Virus record (IMG/VR): IMGVR_UViG_3300032053_018313
Span: 1 to 36,128 of that record
Reading direction: 5' to 3' (one strand)
From: a virus
DNA length: 36,128 nt
Of this stretch, positions 1,311 through 34,308 are shown one piece after another. The position numbers were made by a program, and so were the translations under genes. The notes below the pieces were generated by a model. The model was given only the letters and a program-made list of their open reading frames with translations, did not search any database and had not been told where the DNA came from. The first letter of the stretch is position 1; each line of letters opens with the position of its first letter.

Positions 1311-2892
1311 AACCAATTCCCCTAGCATGGAGTTGCTGCCGCAGGATCTGTTCCCCTTGCCCGCCGGAACGTCCGTGATCAAGGCAGGCAGTCAGAACGA
1401 GCGCCGGACGCGGATGCTCAGGAAGATCAAGGTCTACGAGAACGATTGGAAAGACCTGCTGCTGAACGAACTGATGCGGCAGTTCGTACCCGAGACCGCG
1501 CAGTTCATCAAGCTCATGGCTGACACCTCGCAGAACATTTTCCGTCGCATCATCCGCGAAACCTCCACCGTCTATACGAACGGCGTCGTACGGGAACTTC
1601 TCGGCCCCGATGGCGAGCCACTCGACTTCCCGCTCTATGCCGAACTCACGGACGAATGGAAACTCGACTGGATGATGGCCGAAGCGCAACGCCTGGCGAA
1701 GGCCGGGAGCGTGGCGTTCATCCGCGTCCGCAGCATCCCGGCCGACCAGAAGCTCATGCTCGAACTCATGTCGCCCGACATCGTGCACGTCGAACTGCGG
1801 GACGACAACCCTCTCGAAATGAAGTCGTTCTCCTACCTCGTCGTCGGCTCGGATAATATGGGGAAGGAGATCCGTTACTGGGTCTACTACGACAAGGCCC
1901 GGCGCCTGTTCCTGAATGAAACGGGGCAACTGCTCGAAAAGAATCCATTCAGCGCCGCATCGGAGGACAACGACCAGGTCAACCGTTACGGCGTCATCCC
2001 CGTCATCCCCTACCACGCCGCGGCACCTACGCGCGGATTCTGGCGTGAGAAGCTGAACGAGGACGCCTACGACGCGAACCTGGTCATCGGCGTCTTTCTC
2101 ACTTATCTCGCGTACCTCGTGAAGACGCAGAGCTTCAAGCAAGTCGTTTTCACGAAGGGCGACACAGGAGACACGCTCGACCGGACCCTCCTGAACGCGA
2201 TCAGTGACCCCTCATTCCCGTTTCTGCTACCCCCCGGCGCAAGCGCCGCGACGCTAGATCTCAAGGCACAAGTCGAGCAGATCGACTCCGTGATTCGCGG
2301 CAAGGTCGCGGCGATCGCGAACAACTTCGGTATCAGCAACGAGAATTTCACATTGAGCGGCAACGTGGCGTCTGGCTTCAGCCTTCGGGTGGCCAATCGC
2401 GCACTCGAGGAAATCCGCAGAGCCGACAAGGAAGTCGCGCGAGCGACGGAAGTGCAACTCTTCCAGCTCCTGCGGCTCATGCAAAACATGGACTACCCGG
2501 ACCGCAGGATCCCCGAGGAGGCCGAGCTCGATTGGAACCCTGGGGAGATCGAGTACCCGCCGACCTGGGATGAGGAGGAGAAGCGATGGCGCTTCGAATT
2601 CGAGTTCAACGTTTCGAACGCAGCGGACTACCTATTGCGGGAAGATCCGGATCTCTCGCGCGAGGAAGCGATCGAGAAGATCAAACAGGTCGCCGAGGAG
2701 AACAAGGAGATCAAGCCGAAGCAGCCGCTCACCGATCTGATCTTCGGCAAGCCGGGAGCAAACATGCCGCCGCAGTTCGGCGGAAACGGAGGCGGGAATG
2801 GCATGGGTCGAGAAGGCGCTCAGGCGCCTGGTGGACGAGGAGATGCGACTCCGGTTCAAGGCGGAGGAGCGGGTGGACAAGGCGCTACGTGA
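1300..2892 (+). CDS. Portal protein (SPP1 gp6-like)
   Basis: Forms the dodecameric ring at the unique capsid vertex through which DNA passes. The call rests on the 530-residue length, the position directly after TerL, and an architecture typical of SPP1-type portals: an N-terminal alpha/beta region, a helical stretch around residues 260-290 (IGVFLTYLAYLVKT), and a charged C-terminal crown. The last 37 residues are Gly/Gln-rich and low in complexity. They overlap the next gene out of frame by 95 bases, so the composition there may be set by the second frame. The ATG lies inside the end of TerL, suggesting coupled translation. Confidence 0.88.
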   Translation: MKDKTNSPSMELLPQDLFPLPAGTSVIKAGSQNERRTRMLRKIKVYENDWKDLLLNELMRQFVPETAQFIKLMADTSQNIFRRIIRETSTVYTNGVVRELLGPDGEPLDFPLYAELTDEWKLDWMMAEAQRLAKAGSVAFIRVRSIPADQKLMLELMSPDIVHVELRDDNPLEMKSFSYLVVGSDNMGKEIRYWVYYDKARRLFLNETGQLLEKNPFSAASEDNDQVNRYGVIPVIPYHAAAPTRGFWREKLNEDAYDANLVIGVFLTYLAYLVKTQSFKQVVFTKGDTGDTLDRTLLNAISDPSFPFLLPPGASAATLDLKAQVEQIDSVIRGKVAAIANNFGISNENFTLSGNVASGFSLRVANRALEEIRRADKEVARATEVQLFQLLRLMQNMDYPDRRIPEEAELDWNPGEIEYPPTWDEEEKRWRFEFEFNVSNAADYLLREDPDLSREEAIEKIKQVAEENKEIKPKQPLTDLIFGKPGANMPPQFGGNGGGNGMGREGAQAPGGRGDATPVQGGGAGGQGAT

Positions 2893-3052
2893 TCTGGACA
2901 TGGCCGTCCTTGTACGAATGCCCGGTGAATACGGCAAACGATTCGCGATGACGGTGGCTGAGGGAACCCTCAAAGCCGTGGGCGACCAGGCCATCGAAGC
3001 AGGGAGGCGTTTTGGAAAAGAGATTCGAAGATCTGTCATTCGCCAAACCTGA
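2798..3052 (+). CDS. Small charged helical protein overlapping portal
   Basis: 84 residues, very rich in Arg, Lys and Glu, with a predicted helical N-terminal half (MAWVEKALRRLVDEEMRLRF). No family is recognised. The start is supported by GGAGG at 2788-2792, five bases before the ATG. It overlaps the portal 3-prime end in another frame for 95 bases and runs 41 bases into the next gene. Its place between portal and neck genes suggests a head-assembly role, but this is inference from position only. Confidence 0.55.
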   Translation: MAWVEKALRRLVDEEMRLRFKAEERVDKALRDLDMAVLVRMPGEYGKRFAMTVAEGTLKAVGDQAIEAGRRFGKEIRRSVIRQT

Positions 3053-3458
3053 GGTCTTCCAGAAATCCATTCGCGGACTGCTGATGACGTGTGGTACGCG
3101 AGTGATAGACGGGATCGTTCGGGGCATCGCGGAATCGACGACTCCGACCGGGGGCGCGCAAAAGCGCAACGCCGCGAGCACGATCAGGGCGAAGGGACAT
3201 GATCATCCGCTCGTGGGGGTGGAAGGATTGTTGGGGGATCATGGCACCTACACGAAGGAGTACGGAGAGAGGAGTCACGCGGTAGAGATTCGATTGAAGC
3301 CCGTACGCGCGGACGTGGGGGTGTATGTGCAGAGAAAGGGGTACTACTTCTTCGACTTCACACCGTGGTCTGTTGATCAGATGGACAAACTCGTAGCGCA
3401 GTTTTGCGCGAAGTGGGCCAGGGAGATCACGCTGGACAGGAGCGGTGGTGGACCATAG
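3012..3458 (+). CDS. Virion morphogenesis / tail-completion-like protein
   Basis: 148 residues beginning at a TTG with a strong SD (AGGGAGG at 3001-3007). The segment around residues 35-75 has the pattern of HK97 gp10 or Mu gpG/virion-morphogenesis proteins: a helix ending in a GIxxS-type turn, TPTGGAQKRNAAST, then HPLVGVEGLL. In that family a DHPL..G.L stretch follows a T-G-x-Q region. The C-terminus is beta-rich with aromatic residues (KGYYFFDFTPW). A neck or tail-completion role is the best guess. The position between portal and head-morphogenesis gene is earlier than usual for that role. Confidence 0.45.
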   Translation: MEKRFEDLSFAKPEVFQKSIRGLLMTCGTRVIDGIVRGIAESTTPTGGAQKRNAASTIRAKGHDHPLVGVEGLLGDHGTYTKEYGERSHAVEIRLKPVRADVGVYVQRKGYYFFDFTPWSVDQMDKLVAQFCAKWAREITLDRSGGGP

Positions 3459-24106: not shown

Positions 24107-24233
24107 GCGCCGCATGAGGCCCCGAGGGAGGTGGTGGTCGCCGCCCTCCCGGCCTCTCCTCCGGGAACGGCGGGGGGAGGACCTACGGCGCAAGCCGCTC
24201 CCCTCGCCAACTTCAGAGAGCAAGGAGAGAATC
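24107..24233 (+). promoter_or_regulatory. Three-hairpin leader before recombination genes
   Basis: No gene is supported here, although a reading frame stays open. The first stem pairs GAGGCC (24116-24121) with GGCCTC (24151-24156). It continues as GGGAGG (24126-24131) with CCTCCC (24145-24150), leaving a 4-base bulge on the 5-prime side. A second stem is TCCTCC/GGAGGA (24157-24162, 24176-24181). A third is CGGC-GCAA-GCCG (24186-24197) with a GNRA loop. The SD AAGGAGAG follows. The order of hairpins resembles the leftward element at 19832-20177. Confidence 0.45.
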
Positions 24234-25244
24234 GTGGCAGACAAAGCAGTCGCGGTCGTGACGCCGGATGCCGCAAAGGCGCGGGCGCTCGCGATCATCA
24301 AGCAGCACACGGAGGCGGTCTCCTACGTGCGAACCGAGGACCTCGACACGCAGGGCATGTTCCTGCCCGTCGTCGCGGTCATCGCGATGGTGCCGGCGGA
24401 CCTCCACCAGCTCGCCGGCGAGATGATGATGCCGAAGAAGCACCACGTCGATCGCATGGCGGAGGCCGCGGGGGTCAACGTGACCTCCGTGGACGTCCAG
24501 CATCCGTCGCCGCATGTCTGGACCGCGAAGGCTCACGGGACGAAGCGGGCGCCGGACGGAACCATGCGCGAGGGCGAAGGGGAGTACGCCTTCGACGCCG
24601 AGAAGTACGCGGAGCTCGACTTCCTCAAGGACGAGAAGGGCAAGTACACCACGGAGAAGGCGAAGCGGATCCACCTTCTGGAGTACGGGAAGTTCGGCCA
24701 TCAGCGGGCCAGCACGGGCGCGCGGCTCGCGCTCATCCGGTTCTTCTGCAAGTGCCCGACCGCCTTCAAGCGCGGAGAATTGCCGAAAGCCATGATCTTT
24801 GCGCGGGTCGACCTCAACACGGACGGTCTGCTCGCAACTCCCGAAATGCGTGAGGCCGCGATCGCGCACGCGCTGGGAGCGACCCGGACGCTGTTCGGGT
24901 CCGAGGCCCCGCACGAGTTCGTCGAGCGCAACGTCACCCCGCCGGTCTCCCCGACCGAACCGGAAGCGGCGCCCCTGGGAGGGGAGAGCGCCGGAGCCGA
25001 CCCGTTCGACGACGAACCCGCCCAACCCACCACCACAGAACCCACCCCGCTCGATCTCGCCCGCACCGCCCTCGAGGAGTGGGGGTCGAGCGACCTGGTC
25101 AAAGCCCACCCGCGCGCAGGCCCCGCGGTCACGGCGCTGCTTGCCAAGGCGGACGCCACCCTGGAGGAAATCCAGTCGATGCTCGCGAAGTGCAAGGAGC
25201 TCCAGGACCTGCGGGAGAAGCAGAAAGCGGGAGGCACGGTATGA
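24234..25244 (+). CDS. Possible recombination (annealing-type) protein
   Basis: 336 residues from a GTG with AAGGAGAG upstream; the longer in-frame start lacks an SD. The core holds GQ-like region FGHQRASTGARLALIRFFCK, preceded by HPSPHVWTAKAHGTKRAPDG and followed by AMIFARVDLNTDGLLATPEM. A Pro/Thr linker separates a C-terminal helical tail (about 270-336). No family is certain. Its place before SbcDC and after a possible nuclease suggests a RecT/ERF-like or DNA-binding recombination role, which is inference. Confidence 0.45.
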   Translation: MADKAVAVVTPDAAKARALAIIKQHTEAVSYVRTEDLDTQGMFLPVVAVIAMVPADLHQLAGEMMMPKKHHVDRMAEAAGVNVTSVDVQHPSPHVWTAKAHGTKRAPDGTMREGEGEYAFDAEKYAELDFLKDEKGKYTTEKAKRIHLLEYGKFGHQRASTGARLALIRFFCKCPTAFKRGELPKAMIFARVDLNTDGLLATPEMREAAIAHALGATRTLFGSEAPHEFVERNVTPPVSPTEPEAAPLGGESAGADPFDDEPAQPTTTEPTPLDLARTALEEWGSSDLVKAHPRAGPAVTALLAKADATLEEIQSMLAKCKELQDLREKQKAGGTV

Positions 25245-25330
25245 GAATCACGCAGGTTACGTATCGCCGCGTCTACAACCTCGGCAACGCTTCAGTGGGG
25301 CTCGCGCAGCGGAAGGCAGGTTCGGCATGA
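25241..25330 (+). CDS. Short peptide, truncated NLGN-type protein
   Basis: 29 residues, beginning MRITQVTYRRVYNLGN. Many phages carry a longer protein that begins with a very similar stretch (IT-x-VTY-x-R-x-[FY]NLGNYE...). Here the reading ends about 13 residues after NLGN. The ATG overlaps the previous stop and the stop overlaps the SbcDC start, both as ATGA. It may be a real micro-ORF or a remnant kept for coupling. Confidence 0.5.
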   Translation: MRITQVTYRRVYNLGNASVGLAQRKAGSA

Positions 25331-28300
25331 GCCTGCAAATCCTTCACGCAAGCGACATCCACTACGCGCCCGAGCACAAGGCCGAGGCGCTCGCTTCCCT
25401 GCGGGTGCTTCGCGACACGGCACGCGAGCGGGAGGTCGATCTCGTCGCCATCGCGGGCGACCTCTTCGACCGCGGGTTGCAGGCGACGGACCGGGACGGT
25501 TACGCCGAACTCGTGGCCATCATCCAGGAGATCCTGGGGATCGCGCCCATCGTCGCCGTCAGAGGCACGCCGAGTCACGACCCGCCGGGAGCCTACGACG
25601 TGCTGACCAGGCTACAGGCCAAGCACGAGTTCACGGCGATCGAGCCCGGAACGGCTTACTACCTGCACGCCTCGGGCGACGTCGTCCCGTTTGACTGTGG
25701 CGACGAGAACCGCCTGCTCATCCTGGGGGTGCCGGAGCCAGGGAAGGCGTGGCTACTCGCGAATGGAGACGGCCTGGGCAGCGCAGAGGCCAGCCAGGCC
25801 GTCGTGGATGCGATGAAGGCGCTCCTGCTTGGACTTGGTGGTCTCCGCAGGAAACACCCGGAACTCGCAACCGTCCTGTTGTACCACGGGGCGATCCGCG
25901 GCGCAACCATGGGCGCCGGCCAGCTCGTGAGCGGCACGGAGCTCGCGATCGGCGCCGAGGACCTGGCGCTCGCGGGGGCGGACTATTACCCTCTCGGGCA
26001 CATTCACAAAGCGCAGCAGATCGGAGAGATGCCGGCGTACTACGCCGGGAGCGCGTACCCCGTCGACTGGGGCGAGCTGGATCAGAAGGCGTGCAACCTC
26101 GTCGAGCTGCTCGAGCCCGGCCACCCCCCCGTCATCGAGCGCATCCCGTTCCCGCACCCGCCACGGTGCAAGATCCAGAGCGATGGCGTCAGTCTGGACG
26201 CGCTCCTCGACGAGCGGCCCATGGACGGCAAGCAGACATGGCTCGTGGTCCGCAACACCACAGAGAACCTCGCGGACCTGAGCGAGGAGGCGATGCTGGG
26301 GTGGCTCGTCGACCACGGCGCGCTCCCCGGCTCCCGCGTGACCTTCGACCCGATCCCCGTGGAGACCGTACGCGCCGCGGAGATCACGGACGCGCAGCAT
26401 CTGCGGGACAAGGCGGGCGTGTGGGCGGAGGCGTCCGGGCTTGTGCCTCCCACCGATCCCGTGCTGGCAAAAGCCGACACACTGGAGGACGAGGCAATAG
26501 CCAGCGGAGCGGTAGGCGAGGGCCTGCACATCCGCGTGCGCTCGCTGACCCTGCGCGGGGCCATCGGGATCTGGCGCGGCCTCGGCGTGGACGAAGTGTC
26601 GCTCGACCTCGACGCCTACGAGCCCGGCCTGGTAGCCCTCGTGGGCCCGAACGGCGCCGGCAAGAGCACGCTCATCGAGAACCTGCACCCGTACACGCAG
26701 ATGCTGACCAGGGGCGGCGGGCTCGCGCAGCACTTCCGGCTCAAGGACAGCCGGCGGGAGCTGAAGTTCATCGACGCGCGCACCGGCGCCGAGTACCGCG
26801 CGCTCATTCTCATCGACCCGACCCTCGCGACCCCGAAGACCGAGTGCTACCTGTACAAGGACGGAGAGCCGCTCTGCACCGGGCGCGTCAAGGAGTACGA
26901 GGAGCTGGTCGGCCGCCTGTTCGGCTCGCTCGATCTGTTCGTCAAATCCGCTTTTGTCGCGCAGAAGCCGCCAAAGGGGCACCCGGACCTCGCCGACGCC
27001 ACGCCGGCGGAGCGCAAGAGTCTCTTCCGCGAGCTCGGCGGCCTGGACTACCTCCAGGGGTACGCGGAGAGAGCGAAGGAGCGAGCCGACACCATCGCGC
27101 AGCTCATGGGCGAGGACAGGGCGCGTGCCAGCGTGATCCGGCCGCTACTCGAACAAGAACCGGATAGGATCGTGGAACTCGCGCGCACAGACACGACGCT
27201 CGAAGCAGCGAAGGCGCAAGCTGAAACCGTGAAAGCCGCGGGCGTCGCGCAGCGCAAGCAGGTCGAGGCGCTGGCCGTCCGCGTAACCGATCAGCGCGAG
27301 ATCACGCAACGGCGCGGCTCGCTTCTCGAGGAGCACGCCCGGATGAAGCGAGAGAACGACGCGAGTGAACAGAAATCGAAAACATTCACCGCTGCTCTCG
27401 CGGGCCGGCCGGCCGCGGTGGAGATCGTGCAGAAGGCCGACGACCTGGACAAAGCCAAGGAGGACCTGAGTGAACGAAAAGCGAAAATGTTCACCGAGCG
27501 GGATGCGATCAGCACAAAGCACGCCGCTGCGCTCGCGGCTCATCTCCATGATCGCGACCAGGTGCAGGCGGAAATCCGGCGCATGGAGAAGCAGGCGGCG
27601 GACTTGCGCGCCCGAAAAGCAGGCTTTGTGGCCACGGTCGACACTCTCGGGCTCCAGGCGGAGCAGCCGATAGACGACACCTGCCCGACCTGCGGGCAGA
27701 CACTGCCGGAGGGCAAGCGCGCGGAGCTGGAGGCCGCGCGGGACGAACTGCGCGGGAAACTCGCACAGACGCAGGAGGCGGTGCTCGCTATCGACAACGC
27801 GCTCATCGAGGCCGGGCGAATCCAGTCCGCTGCCGAGACGAGTCTCTCTGCGATGATCGAGCCGCGGGCCCCGACCCTGCCCACCTTCGAGCAGCAGCCG
27901 GCGCTCGACGCAGTGCTCGCGGCGCTGGCGAAGCTCGACGTTCCGCGCGCGCGGGAGACCATCCGGCTGGCAGACGCAGCGGAGGCGCAGATCGCGGCAG
28001 CACGGACCCGGGGCGAGCAGATCGCCGCACGGCTCACCGAGATCGACACCGAGCGGACGGCACTCATGGCCCGCGTCGACGAGACCGTAGGGCCAGAGCA
28101 CGCCAAGGCGCAAGCAACGCTCGACGAGCTGCGCGAGCAGTACACGACGGCAACGGCGGAAGTGGCGCGGCTGGAAGCAGAGGTGAAGGCGCTCAGGGCT
28201 ACCCTCGCGGACCTGGCGCAGAAGCGCGCCACTCTCGCAGAGATCGAGGCGCGAATTGCAGCCGCGGACTGCGATTTGGCCGACTGGCGCTACCTGGAGC

Positions 28301-28809
28301 GGGCCTGCGGGCGCGACGGCATCCAGGCCCTCGAGCTCGACGCGATGGGGCCGAGCATCGCCGAGACCGCGAACGGCTTGCTCGATGCGGCCTACGGCTC
28401 GCGCTTCCGCGTGGAGATCCGCACGACCAGGATTGCCGGAAGGGGCAGCAAGACCAAGCAAGTCGAGGACTTCGAACTCATCGTCCACGACACCGAGCGC
28501 GGGACAGAGCAGCCCCTCGACACCCTGAGCGGCGGGGAGACCGTGTGGATACGCAAGGCCCTCTACGACGCCTTCGGCATCATCCGCGCCCGGACCACGG
28601 GCACCAAGTTTTTGACGGTCTGCCTCGACGAGGCCGATGGAGCCCTCGACCCTGAGGCCAGGCGGCGCTACGTCGCGATGCTCAGGGCCGCCCACGAGGC
28701 GGCTGGCAGGCGGCACACGATCTGCATCACCCACAGCGAGGATGCGCAGCAGGCCATCGGGCAGAGGATCGACATGCGCGAGTTCGCGGGATCGGCGGTG
28801 ACGGCGTGA
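25327..28809 (+). CDS. Single-chain SbcD-SbcC (Mre11-Rad50) nuclease-ATPase fusion
   Basis: 1160 residues with no internal stop. The N-terminal 380 residues are an SbcD/Mre11 metallophosphoesterase: D10-x-H12, GD45LFDRG, H84-D85, H187 (LLYHG) and GH225IH227. The canonical GNHD is replaced by GTPSHD. Residues about 400-1160 are SbcC/Rad50: Walker A GPNGAGKST (440-448), long coiled coils around a zinc hook CPTC (786-789), signature LSGGE (1067-1071), Walker B LTVCLDEADGALD (1096-1108) and H-loop THS. It processes DNA ends and hairpins. Usually these are two separate genes. ATG 25327 is preferred over the upstream in-frame reading that lies inside other genes. Confidence 0.88.
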   Translation: MSLQILHASDIHYAPEHKAEALASLRVLRDTAREREVDLVAIAGDLFDRGLQATDRDGYAELVAIIQEILGIAPIVAVRGTPSHDPPGAYDVLTRLQAKHEFTAIEPGTAYYLHASGDVVPFDCGDENRLLILGVPEPGKAWLLANGDGLGSAEASQAVVDAMKALLLGLGGLRRKHPELATVLLYHGAIRGATMGAGQLVSGTELAIGAEDLALAGADYYPLGHIHKAQQIGEMPAYYAGSAYPVDWGELDQKACNLVELLEPGHPPVIERIPFPHPPRCKIQSDGVSLDALLDERPMDGKQTWLVVRNTTENLADLSEEAMLGWLVDHGALPGSRVTFDPIPVETVRAAEITDAQHLRDKAGVWAEASGLVPPTDPVLAKADTLEDEAIASGAVGEGLHIRVRSLTLRGAIGIWRGLGVDEVSLDLDAYEPGLVALVGPNGAGKSTLIENLHPYTQMLTRGGGLAQHFRLKDSRRELKFIDARTGAEYRALILIDPTLATPKTECYLYKDGEPLCTGRVKEYEELVGRLFGSLDLFVKSAFVAQKPPKGHPDLADATPAERKSLFRELGGLDYLQGYAERAKERADTIAQLMGEDRARASVIRPLLEQEPDRIVELARTDTTLEAAKAQAETVKAAGVAQRKQVEALAVRVTDQREITQRRGSLLEEHARMKRENDASEQKSKTFTAALAGRPAAVEIVQKADDLDKAKEDLSERKAKMFTERDAISTKHAAALAAHLHDRDQVQAEIRRMEKQAADLRARKAGFVATVDTLGLQAEQPIDDTCPTCGQTLPEGKRAELEAARDELRGKLAQTQEAVLAIDNALIEAGRIQSAAETSLSAMIEPRAPTLPTFEQQPALDAVLAALAKLDVPRARETIRLADAAEAQIAAARTRGEQIAARLTEIDTERTALMARVDETVGPEHAKAQATLDELREQYTTATAEVARLEAEVKALRATLADLAQKRATLAEIEARIAAADCDLADWRYLERACGRDGIQALELDAMGPSIAETANGLLDAAYGSRFRVEIRTTRIAGRGSKTKQVEDFELIVHDTERGTEQPLDTLSGGETVWIRKALYDAFGIIRARTTGTKFLTVCLDEADGALDPEARRRYVAMLRAAHEAAGRRHTICITHSEDAQQAIGQRIDMREFAGSAVTA

Positions 28810-29134: not shown

Positions 29135-29365
29135 CAGGCTGGCGACTGCCTCAAGTGTCGCTGCGCTGTCCCGGGGCGGCGTAGGGGCCAGAACCTCCTT
29201 GTCTGTTACGGCAGGAGCGCCCGGGCGCTCCATTTCGGGTGAGTGAGGACACCCCGGAGAGACGGGGAACATGCGGGCGCCAGGGCGCGGGGGTTGTCTC
29301 TCCTTTCCCCCGCGGGCCTGCGGCCGGTCCAAGTCCGGCCGCCCGTTGAAGAGGGAGGGGGAACG
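29135..29365 (+). promoter_or_regulatory. 231-base structured leader of the replication gene
   Basis: No gene is supported. There is an 18-base perfect palindrome (29214-29231: GGAGCGCCCGGGCGCTCC). GGAGAGAC (29256-29263) pairs exactly with GTCTCTCC (29296-29303), and the first also lies in the loop of CCCCG-gagaga-CGGGG, so two folds or a pseudoknot compete. CGGG/CCCG (29313-29316, 29342-29345) encloses CGGCCGG-tccaagt-CCGGCCG with a 4-base bulge on the 5-prime side. Then GAGGGAGGGGG forms the SD, which CCCCC at 29307-29311 could mask. It reads as a possible cis-acting RNA. Confidence 0.5.
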
Positions 29366-30184
29366 GTGAGCAAGCAGCGTATTGTGGATACGTGCTTCTG
29401 GGATGACGGGTACATTGCCAAACTCGATCCGTCAGAGAAGCTGCTTTTCCTCTACCTGCTGACGAATCCTCTCACGACAATTTGCGGGGTCTATCAGATC
29501 GAGCTCCGCCGCATTGCTTTCGACACCGGATTCGACCCCGACACGGTGACACGCATGCTGATCAGATTGGAACGGGACGGGAAGTGCTCGTATCGCGAGG
29601 GGTGGATCGCACTGCGCAACTGGATCAAACACCAACGAATCCGCAACAGGAACGTCAGGAGGGGAATCGACAGAGAACTTTCGGCGGTTCCGCCAGAGTT
29701 CGCCGACTGGGTACAGGGAGGGAAACTACCAAGTCACTCCAAATCACTCCGAGTGACTCCAAGTCACATTGCACCTAACTCAACTAAACCTAACTCAACT
29801 AAACCCAACCTAACTAGACCTAACCTAGCGGTAGCGGCCAAGCCCGCCACCCCGGACCCGTTCTCCCTTCACCGCGCAATCCAGGAAGCCTTCGAGTCAA
29901 AGCACGGCGCCTTCAGCGACTACGGGAAAGAAGGAGCCGCCATCAAGCGCCTCATCGCCAAGGCCAGCAAGTCCTTCCCCGCCGACCCCGAGTCTTTCCT
30001 TCGGGAGCTCCTGGAAACCTTCTGGCAACTCAAGGAGAGCGGGGACCGCTTCTGGGGCGAGCAACCTTTCACGCCGTCCGCTTTGAACGCGAGCGGCATC
30101 TACGACCGGGTATGCGAGCGGATGCGGGCGTCGACTCCGACCGACGCAGCGACGGCCCAGGCAATCGAGGGGGTGTTCAAGTGA
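29366..30184 (+). CDS. Replication initiator (DnaD/O-like)
   Basis: 272 residues from a GTG, with the SD GGGAGGGGG. The N-terminal 105 residues form a winged-helix-type domain: SEKLLFLYLLTNPLTTICGV, YQIELRRIAFDTGFDPDTVT, RMLIRLERDGKCSYREGWIA, as in phage replisome-organiser N-termini. A Thr/Pro/Asn linker (NSTKPNSTKPNLTRPNL) covers residues 137-153, followed by a helical C-terminal domain (LHRAIQEAFESKHGAFSDYG onward) of DnaD-like type. It would bind and melt the origin and recruit the helicase. The linker DNA carries direct repeats that may be the origin itself, as in lambda O. Confidence 0.7.
   Translation: MSKQRIVDTCFWDDGYIAKLDPSEKLLFLYLLTNPLTTICGVYQIELRRIAFDTGFDPDTVTRMLIRLERDGKCSYREGWIALRNWIKHQRIRNRNVRRGIDRELSAVPPEFADWVQGGKLPSHSKSLRVTPSHIAPNSTKPNSTKPNLTRPNLAVAAKPATPDPFSLHRAIQEAFESKHGAFSDYGKEGAAIKRLIAKASKSFPADPESFLRELLETFWQLKESGDRFWGEQPFTPSALNASGIYDRVCERMRASTPTDAATAQAIEGVFK
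29731..29830 (+). repeat. Iteron-like repeats, probable replication origin
   Basis: Within the initiator gene, 10-base units run from 29731: AAGTCACTCC, AAATCACTCC, GAGTGACTCC, AAGTCACATT. Then 15-base units follow: CCTAACTCAACTAAA at 29774-29788 and again at 29789-29803, with degenerate copies to 29830. The block is A+T-richer than the rest of the gene. Iterons inside the initiator gene are the lambda/lambdoid origin layout. Confidence 0.55.
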
Positions 30185-32963: not shown

Positions 32964-33439
32964 CCGAGCAGGAACTGGCAGCGGTGATGGAGCGGCGGGA
33001 TGTACGCAAGAGGACATGGGACTGGGCAGTTAGTGCCCCTCCGATAAAGATGGCAGCGGCGGCGAACCAAGCCGAAGCCGACCGCTCTGCCCTCCTCGAC
33101 CACATCGACGCCCAGGCAAAGGCGTGCGCCGAGTGCCGTGAGTCGTGGGAAACACAGACTGAAAGGTCTGACGCCCACGAGGAAGCCCAGGCGAGGGAGA
33201 TCAGGTTCTGCGGCGGTGCCATCGCACAATACAAGATCACTGAGGCGGACCTATGCACGCGGGGCATCGCGCTGCGGGACGAGAATGCCCGGCAGCGGCG
33301 GGCGATCTACAGGCTCGCGGCGTGGATACACGAGGACAGGGCATATTTGCGGGCAGATGACATAGGACTGTACACAGACAGTTTGGATGCCCATGCTCGC
33401 ATCCGCGCCCGGCTCGCGGCGATGGAGGCGCGGGGATGA
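32960..33439 (+). CDS. Unrecognised helical protein
   Basis: 159 residues from ATG 32960 (ATGA overlap). The sequence is mostly helical with a C-x2-C (AKACAECRESWE) near residue 56 and a charged C-terminus (ARLAAMEARG). GGAGGGGG lies just upstream. A longer in-frame start lies inside the previous gene. Function unknown; position in a run of accessory genes. Confidence 0.6.
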   Translation: MTEQELAAVMERRDVRKRTWDWAVSAPPIKMAAAANQAEADRSALLDHIDAQAKACAECRESWETQTERSDAHEEAQAREIRFCGGAIAQYKITEADLCTRGIALRDENARQRRAIYRLAAWIHEDRAYLRADDIGLYTDSLDAHARIRARLAAMEARG

Positions 33440-34308
33440 CGCGCGACGAACAACTCGCCTTGGCTCGTGACGAGCGCCAGAAGGTGGAAGCCGGTAACGC
33501 TCGGCCGATACTCCGCGTGATCTCTCTCGGTGCTGGAGTGCAGTCTACGACGCTGGCTCTGTTGGCAAAGGATGGAATCGTGGAGATGCCTGACTGCGCG
33601 ATCTTCGCGGATACTCAGGCGGAACCAAAAGCGGTCTACCGGCACTTGGATTGGCTCGAGAGCGTGTTGCCATTCCCGGTGCATCGGGTGACGGCGGGTA
33701 GTTTGACCAAGGAAATCCTGGGGGCGATGGAAGGTACGAATCGGATGGATGCACGCCCGCCGTTTCACGTTGAGACCGGCGGGATGTTGCACCGCCAGTG
33801 CACGCAAGATTTCAAGATCGCACCGATCCAGAAGAAGATCAGGGAACTTATCGGGGTCGGCAAAGGAGAACGCGCGCCGCGTGATCCAGTGGTCGAGCAG
33901 TGGATCGGAATATCGCTCGATGAAGTACGCCGCATGAAGGTGAGTCGCATGCCATACATCGTCCATCGGTGGCCACTGATCGAATTGAAGATGACCCGTG
34001 GGGATTGCAAGGCGTGGATCGAAAAGCACGGCTACCCGATACCGGCAAAGAGTGCATGCACCTTCTGCCCCTACCACGACCAAGCGGTGTGGCGAGCGCT
34101 CAAGCAGAATCCAGAGGATTGGGCGGAAGCCGTGAAGGTGGACCTCGCTATTCGTCCAGGCATCACGAATCGGGGATGGACGGAGCCCCTGCGGTGGTTT
34201 GTACATCGAGATAGGGTGCCGCTTTCAGAGGTGGACCTATCGACGGAGGACGAACGCGGACAACTCGATCTGTTCACCAACGAGTGCGAGGGGATGTGCG
34301 GTGTATGA
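33436..34308 (+). CDS. PAPS-reductase-like PP-loop protein
   Basis: 290 residues. The PP-loop is SLGAGVQST (residues 30-38) in RVISLGAGVQSTTLALLA, the usual phage form in which SGG is replaced by SLGAG. Later motifs are IFADTQAEPKAVYRHLDWLE, QCTQDFKIAPI (C122), and ACTFCPYHD (C208, C211). These Cys suggest an Fe-S or zinc site. The family resembles PAPS reductases and related ATP-pyrophosphatases. In phages its substrate is unknown, and nucleic-acid modification is one suggestion. ATGA overlap with the gene upstream. Confidence 0.85.
   Translation: MTRDEQLALARDERQKVEAGNARPILRVISLGAGVQSTTLALLAKDGIVEMPDCAIFADTQAEPKAVYRHLDWLESVLPFPVHRVTAGSLTKEILGAMEGTNRMDARPPFHVETGGMLHRQCTQDFKIAPIQKKIRELIGVGKGERAPRDPVVEQWIGISLDEVRRMKVSRMPYIVHRWPLIELKMTRGDCKAWIEKHGYPIPAKSACTFCPYHDQAVWRALKQNPEDWAEAVKVDLAIRPGITNRGWTEPLRWFVHRDRVPLSEVDLSTEDERGQLDLFTNECEGMCGV

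What the first reader, a model, noticed from the sequence alone, without database searches (positions are those of the whole stretch)
25327..28809. SbcD and SbcC fused in one 1160-residue polypeptide
All five phosphoesterase motif regions of Mre11/SbcD (with GNHD altered to GTPSHD) are followed in the same frame by a full Rad50/SbcC ATPase with Walker A, zinc hook CPTC, LSGGE and Walker B. The two are normally separate subunits (SbcD/SbcC, gp47/gp46). A single chain forces 1:1 pairing of nuclease and ATPase and would constrain how the coiled coils open. The loss of the Asn in motif III may alter catalysis.
Basis: partly seen in the sequence, partly recalled or inferred. Interest (0 to 1): 0.7.

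Follow-up and report, generated by a model that had tools for sequence, protein, structure and literature searches.

The report
Phage DNA-break nuclease and motor fused
This phage gene joins the DNA-cutting enzyme SbcD (Mre11) and its ATP-driven partner SbcC (Rad50) in one protein; it is real and shared by over 40 related phage sequences, but such fusions have been known since 2011, and the new parts are a shared change in the active site and relatives that split again at a different point.

Summary
ORF 25327-28809 (+) encodes one 1160-aa chain: phosphoesterase core, Mre11 capping domain, Rad50-binding helices, then a complete Rad50/SbcC ATPase with coiled coil and CPTC hook. A predicted structure matches E. 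coli SbcD over residues 1-340 (Z 28) and SbcC over 402-1160 (Z 28). It is not an assembly error: 42 distinct fused genes in separate contigs form one clade. The kind is known: Mre11/Rad50 fusions were described in 2011 in Mimivirus, a Bacillus phage, plasmids, bacteria and eukaryotes (PMC3175470). Motif III (GTPSHD) is not damage or a by-product of fusion: a two-residue bulge, G-[T/S/N]-x-x-H-[D/E], occurs in all 42 fused and most related split enzymes; the other metal-site positions are kept and the domain is under purifying selection. Less expected: (1) inside the fused clade the gene was split again twice at a new place, leaving the phosphoesterase core alone and the cap on the Rad50 chain, once with an HNH endonuclease gene between; (2) the adjacent upstream gene looks like a Rad52-type annealing protein and also precedes split relatives. 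Most likely function: end-processing nuclease of a phage annealing-recombination cassette. New variant of a known kind.

The parts
25327..28809 (+). fused SbcD-SbcC (Mre11-Rad50) gene, 1160 aa
25327..26100 (+). phosphoesterase (nuclease) core, residues 1-258
   Evidence: Pfam Metallophos; structure match to E. coli SbcD, model residues 1-340
25564..25581 (+). motif III GTPSHD, residues 80-85: two-residue bulge relative to GNHD
   Evidence: alignments of 54 and 64 sequences
26131..26352 (+). Mre11 capping domain, residues about 269-342
   Evidence: secondary structure and match to SbcD nuclease plus cap
26362..26505 (+). helices 346-393, in the position of the Rad50-binding helix-loop-helix; a linker of about 7 residues follows
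   Evidence: secondary structure; assignment to the Rad50-binding element is inferred from position
26527..27036 (+). Rad50 ATPase N-lobe with Walker A (26644-26667)
27049..28305 (+). coiled coil with zinc hook CPTC at 27682-27693
   Evidence: hook cysteines invariant or nearly so
28321..28776 (+). Rad50 ATPase C-lobe with LSGGE (28525-28539) and Walker B
24114..25244 (+). upstream partner gene (PHROG 13782 family), probable Rad52-like single-strand annealing protein
   Evidence: conserved upstream of 37 of 42 fused genes; weak but consistent Rad52/Mgm101 fold matches
29243..30184 (+). DnaD/DnaA-like replisome organiser downstream
   Evidence: PHROG 6251 4.9e-21 and PHROG 1701 3.4e-19; homologues near several fused loci

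Best explanation
A siphophage-encoded SbcD-SbcC (Mre11-Rad50) fusion that works as an ordinary Mre11-Rad50 nuclease. Two chains are expected to dimerise through the phosphoesterase cores and the ATP-bound Rad50 heads. ATP hydrolysis would rearrange the heads so that DNA ends or hairpins reach the manganese site and are cut. The product would be single strands for the neighbouring Rad52-like annealing protein, so the pair would form the recombination and end-repair cassette of the phage. The fusion arose in a lineage that already had an annealing protein - SbcD - SbcC cassette, and it keeps the cap and the Rad50-binding helices in their natural order. Shown: architecture, homology, single clade, conservation, gene order. 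Inferred: nuclease activity, stoichiometry, partnership with the annealing protein.
For: Model residues 1-340 match E. coli SbcD (Z 28.3, 4.4 A over 319 residues) and 402-1160 match SbcC (Z 28.3, 6.9 A over 420), mean pLDDT 82. D10, H12, D45, H84, H187 and H227 are invariant in 29 fused proteins. Nuclease-core dN/dS is 0.07-0.22 in six pairs. 42 fused plus 3 re-split genes form one clade with support 100 (29 plus 3). The upstream Rad52-like gene precedes 37 of 42 fused genes and also many canonical split pairs.
Against: No biochemical data. The Rad52 match of the upstream protein is weak (best Z 6.7; Foldseek E 4.5e-3). The replacement of the motif III Asn by Thr could change metal use. The subclade L031, L035, L039, L042, L143 has no annealing-protein hit upstream in the DNA held (L039 holds only about 800 bases there), so that partnership is not universal. 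Full-length pTM is only 0.46, so the relative placement of the two halves is not predicted reliably.
Confidence: 0.8

Rival explanations
1. Assembly or sequencing artefact (a lost stop codon or frameshift joining two genes).
For: A single metagenome contig with no read coverage available to inspect.
Against: 41 other distinct fused genes from different samples and from MAG contigs, collinear across the junction, with a conserved cap-helix-ATPase region.
Confidence: 0.01
2. Nuclease-altered variant: the GTPSHD motif makes the nuclease inactive or structural, so the fusion works mainly as a DNA tether.
For: The metal-ligand Asn of GNHD is Thr in 41 of 42 fused proteins and Ser in one.
Against: The other conserved metal-site positions are kept; nuclease-core dN/dS is well below 1; unfused relatives share the same form.
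Confidence: 0.12
3. Anti-defence or host-DNA degradation role rather than recombination (for example attack on host chromosome ends or hairpins).
For: SbcCD-type nucleases cut ends and hairpins (established knowledge of the family); the window also carries a DNA methyltransferase.
Against: Stable linkage to a Rad52-like gene and a replisome organiser rather than to defence genes.
Confidence: 0.07

Closest known systems
Mre11/Rad50 fusion proteins (Mimivirus R555, Bacillus phage 0305phi8-36, C. kluyveri plasmid, Deferribacter; PMC3175470)
   Same: N-terminal nuclease, then cap and helices, then Rad50 in one chain; found in viruses and plasmids
   Different: Sequence lineage not found fused in 50,697 phage records at the sensitivity used; motif III has a two-residue bulge; Rad52-like gene upstream; relatives re-split at another boundary. 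The paper reports the GNHD/E-type motif for R555 with one other change
E. coli SbcCD
   Same: Both folds and the domain order nuclease - cap, then ATPase
   Different: Two genes; GNHD motif; about 20% identity over the aligned structures
Leptospira phage LE1 metallophosphoesterase plus SMC ATPase
   Same: Nearest annotated isolate phage pair; adjacent genes; weak upstream annealing-gene hit
   Different: Split at the usual SbcD/SbcC boundary and has GNHD
Listeria phage LMTA-57 recombination exonuclease AID17555.1
   Same: Also a single 1009-aa fusion in a phage
   Different: Canonical GNHD and no match to this family's cap profile
Homing-endonuclease split genes (nrdA of phage Aeh1, PMC2988022)
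   Same: A free-standing HNH gene splitting a phage enzyme gene, as in relative L004
   Different: Here the split lies between the nuclease core and the cap of SbcD-SbcC

Membership tests
Mre11/SbcD nuclease | phosphoesterase motifs DxH, GD, His/Asp of motif III, H, GHxH | tested here: met
   Motifs I, II, IV, V present; motif III present in modified form G-T-P-S-H-D with His and Asp kept
Mre11/SbcD nuclease | capping domain after the nuclease core | tested here: met
   Model residues 1-340 align to SbcD nuclease plus cap, Z 28
Mre11/SbcD nuclease | canonical GNH in motif III (feature of the studied members) | tested here: not met
   G-[T/S]-x-x-H in 42 of 42 fused; also in split relatives. 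I therefore call it a divergent Mre11-like nuclease rather than a canonical SbcD
Mre11/SbcD nuclease | Mn-dependent nuclease activity | not testable with these tools
   needs purified protein
Rad50/SbcC ATPase | Walker A, signature LSGGE, Walker B on two lobes joined by a coiled coil | tested here: met
Rad50/SbcC ATPase | zinc hook CxxC at the coiled-coil apex | tested here: met
   CPTC 786-789; C786 and P787 invariant and C789 nearly invariant in 29 fused proteins
Mre11/Rad50 fusion proteins of Yoshida et al. 2011 | one chain with both halves in the order nuclease - ATPase, with cap and HLH regions | tested here: met
   searches compared with PMC3175470
Mre11/Rad50 fusion proteins of Yoshida et al. 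2011 | common descent with the published fusions | not tested
   The paper reports that fusions arose repeatedly; the published sequences were not placed in my tree
Rad52-type annealing protein (upstream gene 24114-25244) | Rad52 fold | tested here: inconclusive
   Top-ranked matches are mostly Rad52 with Mgm101, but E 4.5e-3 and Z 6.7 only; no informative sequence hit

The most novel reading that the evidence does not exclude
Within this fused clade the enzyme has been re-split twice at the nuclease/cap junction, so that the Mre11 capping domain and the Rad50-binding helices now belong to the Rad50 chain, while the nuclease subunit is a bare phosphoesterase core of about 234-273 residues. Fusion followed by fission would thus have moved a regulatory domain from one subunit to the other, which suggests that the cap can act as part of the ATPase motor and not of the nuclease.
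Probability: 0.55. Interest if true: 0.55.

Novelty: new variant of a known kind. Interest (0 to 1): 0.4.

Why it matters
The fusion itself adds a phage lineage to a known list. The useful part is comparative: one clade holds the fused form, an HNH-interrupted form and a naturally re-split form with the cap on the other subunit. These are ready-made test proteins for whether the cap is regulated by Rad50 or by Mre11, and for how much of Mre11 is needed for cutting. The clade-wide motif III bulge is a natural variant of a catalytic loop that is nearly fixed in the studied members.

Tried and rejected
Artefact at the junction: rejected by independent contigs. Motif III as damage: rejected because it is clade-wide and shared with unfused relatives. 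L032/L061 as a never-fused outgroup: the tree holding them outside all fused genes is rejected (p-AU 1.3e-16). A scan for more L032/L061-type genes gave none. The residue that sits in the Asn position could not be read from the model; conservation points to T81, because the residue before His varies (S, T, A, G, K, E) whereas the one after Gly is T, S or N. Literature search for a later description of SbcD-SbcC fusions found only the 2011 paper, but the library is open-access only. No other recombination exonuclease was found by PHROGs among the 30 window genes scanned, but not every ORF was scanned. Nearest INPHARED matches are partial or split; hit L133 lies in an Acinetobacter contig with chromosomal genes and was set aside. 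No exact terminal repeat of 15 bases or more at the window ends, so completeness of the window is not shown.

Full report
What is there. The window is a 36,128-base virus record with a siphophage-type gene set: terminase large subunit, major head protein, minor tail protein and tape measure protein, endolysin, methyltransferase, DnaD-like replisome organiser and HNH endonuclease. The ORF at 25327-28809 is open throughout and encodes 1160 aa. Both halves are recognised by profiles.

Structure. An AlphaFold2 model from 29 fused relatives (mean pLDDT 82) shows a phosphoesterase core (1-261), a cap of strands and helices (269-342), three helices (346-393), a linker of about seven residues, and then the two Rad50 lobes around a long coiled coil. 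Structural alignment gives E. coli SbcD over 1-340 and E. coli SbcC over 402-1160, both at Z 28. The fusion therefore preserves the Mre11 C-terminal part. This agrees with the 2011 argument that the C terminus of Mre11 lies about 28 A from the N terminus of Rad50, so a short linker suffices (PMC3175470).

Not an artefact. Searches of IMG/VR and of GTDB genomes gave 41 further distinct full-length fused genes, at 24-48% identity. They include Spirochaetales and Treponema MAG contigs, which may be prophages. One contig, IMGVR_UViG_3300031565_000168 (36,350 bp), carries the two parts of the gene at its two ends (L036 and L140), as expected of a circularly permuted or circular genome of about the window's size.

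Prior knowledge. Yoshida et al. 2011 (PMC3175470) described Mre11/Rad50 fusions in Mimivirus, Bacillus phage 0305phi8-36, plasmids, bacteria and eukaryotes, and proposed repeated origin and spread by mobile elements. The best viral structure matches of the model are fusion-length proteins of giant viruses and of Tenacibaculum phages. Listeria phage LMTA-57 also has a fusion, with GNHD. In 50,697 phage records no place covering 80% of the query was found with three members of this clade.

Motif III. In 42 of 42 fused proteins the motif is G-[T/S]-x-x-H-[D/E] (T in 41, S in L141). Split relatives have GTxSH[D/E] (Burkholderiales, L037, L038, L117) or GNxxHD (L034, L041, L043-L049, L069). Only distant outgroups (E. 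coli, LE1, L050, L051) have GNHD. The simplest reading is a two-residue insertion after the Asn position, with Asn to Thr in a lineage older than the fusion. The remaining metal-site positions are invariant (D10, H12, D45, H84, H187, H227), except that the first His of motif V is Asp in some members (GDIH); an Asp for His change is also reported for Mimivirus R555. Nuclease-core dN/dS is 0.07-0.22.

Evolution. Trees of 54 and 64 sequences without the coiled coil place all fused genes plus three split loci in one clade with support 100; canonical split pairs lie on the other side of one branch. The three split loci inside do not have the usual boundary. In L004 (85% identical to fused L008) the core ends at 2822, an HNH endonuclease ORF (Pfam HNH 1.4e-5) runs 2819-3310, and cap plus Rad50 starts again at an ATG preceded by a Shine-Dalgarno-like AAAGGGG. 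In L032 and L061 the core (234 and 247 aa) overlaps by a few bases with a second gene of about 869 aa that starts with the cap; L032 has AGGAGA before that start. Holding L032 and L061 outside all fused genes is rejected (p-AU 1.3e-16). Counting states alone does not prove direction: one fusion and two fissions cost the same three changes as two fusions and one fission. A cap that has changed sides is, however, most easily explained through a fused intermediate. The cut falls in the variable-length loop between core and cap. A phage enzyme split by an HNH gene that stays functional has a precedent in nrdA of phage Aeh1 (PMC2988022).

Context and mechanism. The gene directly upstream (376 aa, PHROG 13782, unknown function) is found upstream of 37 of 42 fused genes and also of at least ten split pairs, often overlapping the next start codon. 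Its model (core pLDDT above 90) finds Rad52 at the top of both structure comparisons, with Mgm101 also listed, but with weak scores. I therefore propose an annealing protein plus SbcD-SbcC cassette: the fusion trims ends or opens hairpins, and the upstream protein anneals the strands. The architecture and gene linkage are shown; the activity and partnership are inferred.

Verdict. Observation confirmed, interpretation partly supported, known kind with new variants. The value lies in the re-split relatives and in the clade-wide active-site loop.

Noticed in passing
L004:2819-3310: HNH endonuclease gene inserted between nuclease core and cap of an SbcD-SbcC gene whose close relative (L008) is fused; start and stop codons overlap at its edges.
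   Followed up: partly
L032:2890-6298 and L061:9992-13350: Natural re-split genes: bare phosphoesterase core, then cap plus Rad50 as a second overlapping gene.
   Followed up: partly
window 24114-25244: Unknown-function gene (PHROG 13782) with weak but consistent Rad52/Mgm101 fold matches, linked to SbcD-SbcC in most relatives.
   Followed up: partly
L105, L109, L112, L120 and similar Burkholderiales loci: One SbcD-like gene with two or three SbcC-like genes in a row plus short ATPase-like fragments: a multi-copy SbcC cassette; single pairs also occur on large plasmids.
   Followed up: no
L036 and L140 (one contig, 36,350 bp): The fused gene is broken across the contig ends, suggesting a complete genome of the size of the window.
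   Followed up: partly
window 33436-34305: Match to the PHROG phosphoadenosine phosphosulfate reductase family (1.7e-46) in an otherwise ordinary siphophage gene set.
   Followed up: no
window 25241-25330: Short 29-codon ORF between the Rad52-like gene and the fusion, overlapping both at ATGA, possibly a remnant of a small phage gene.
   Followed up: no
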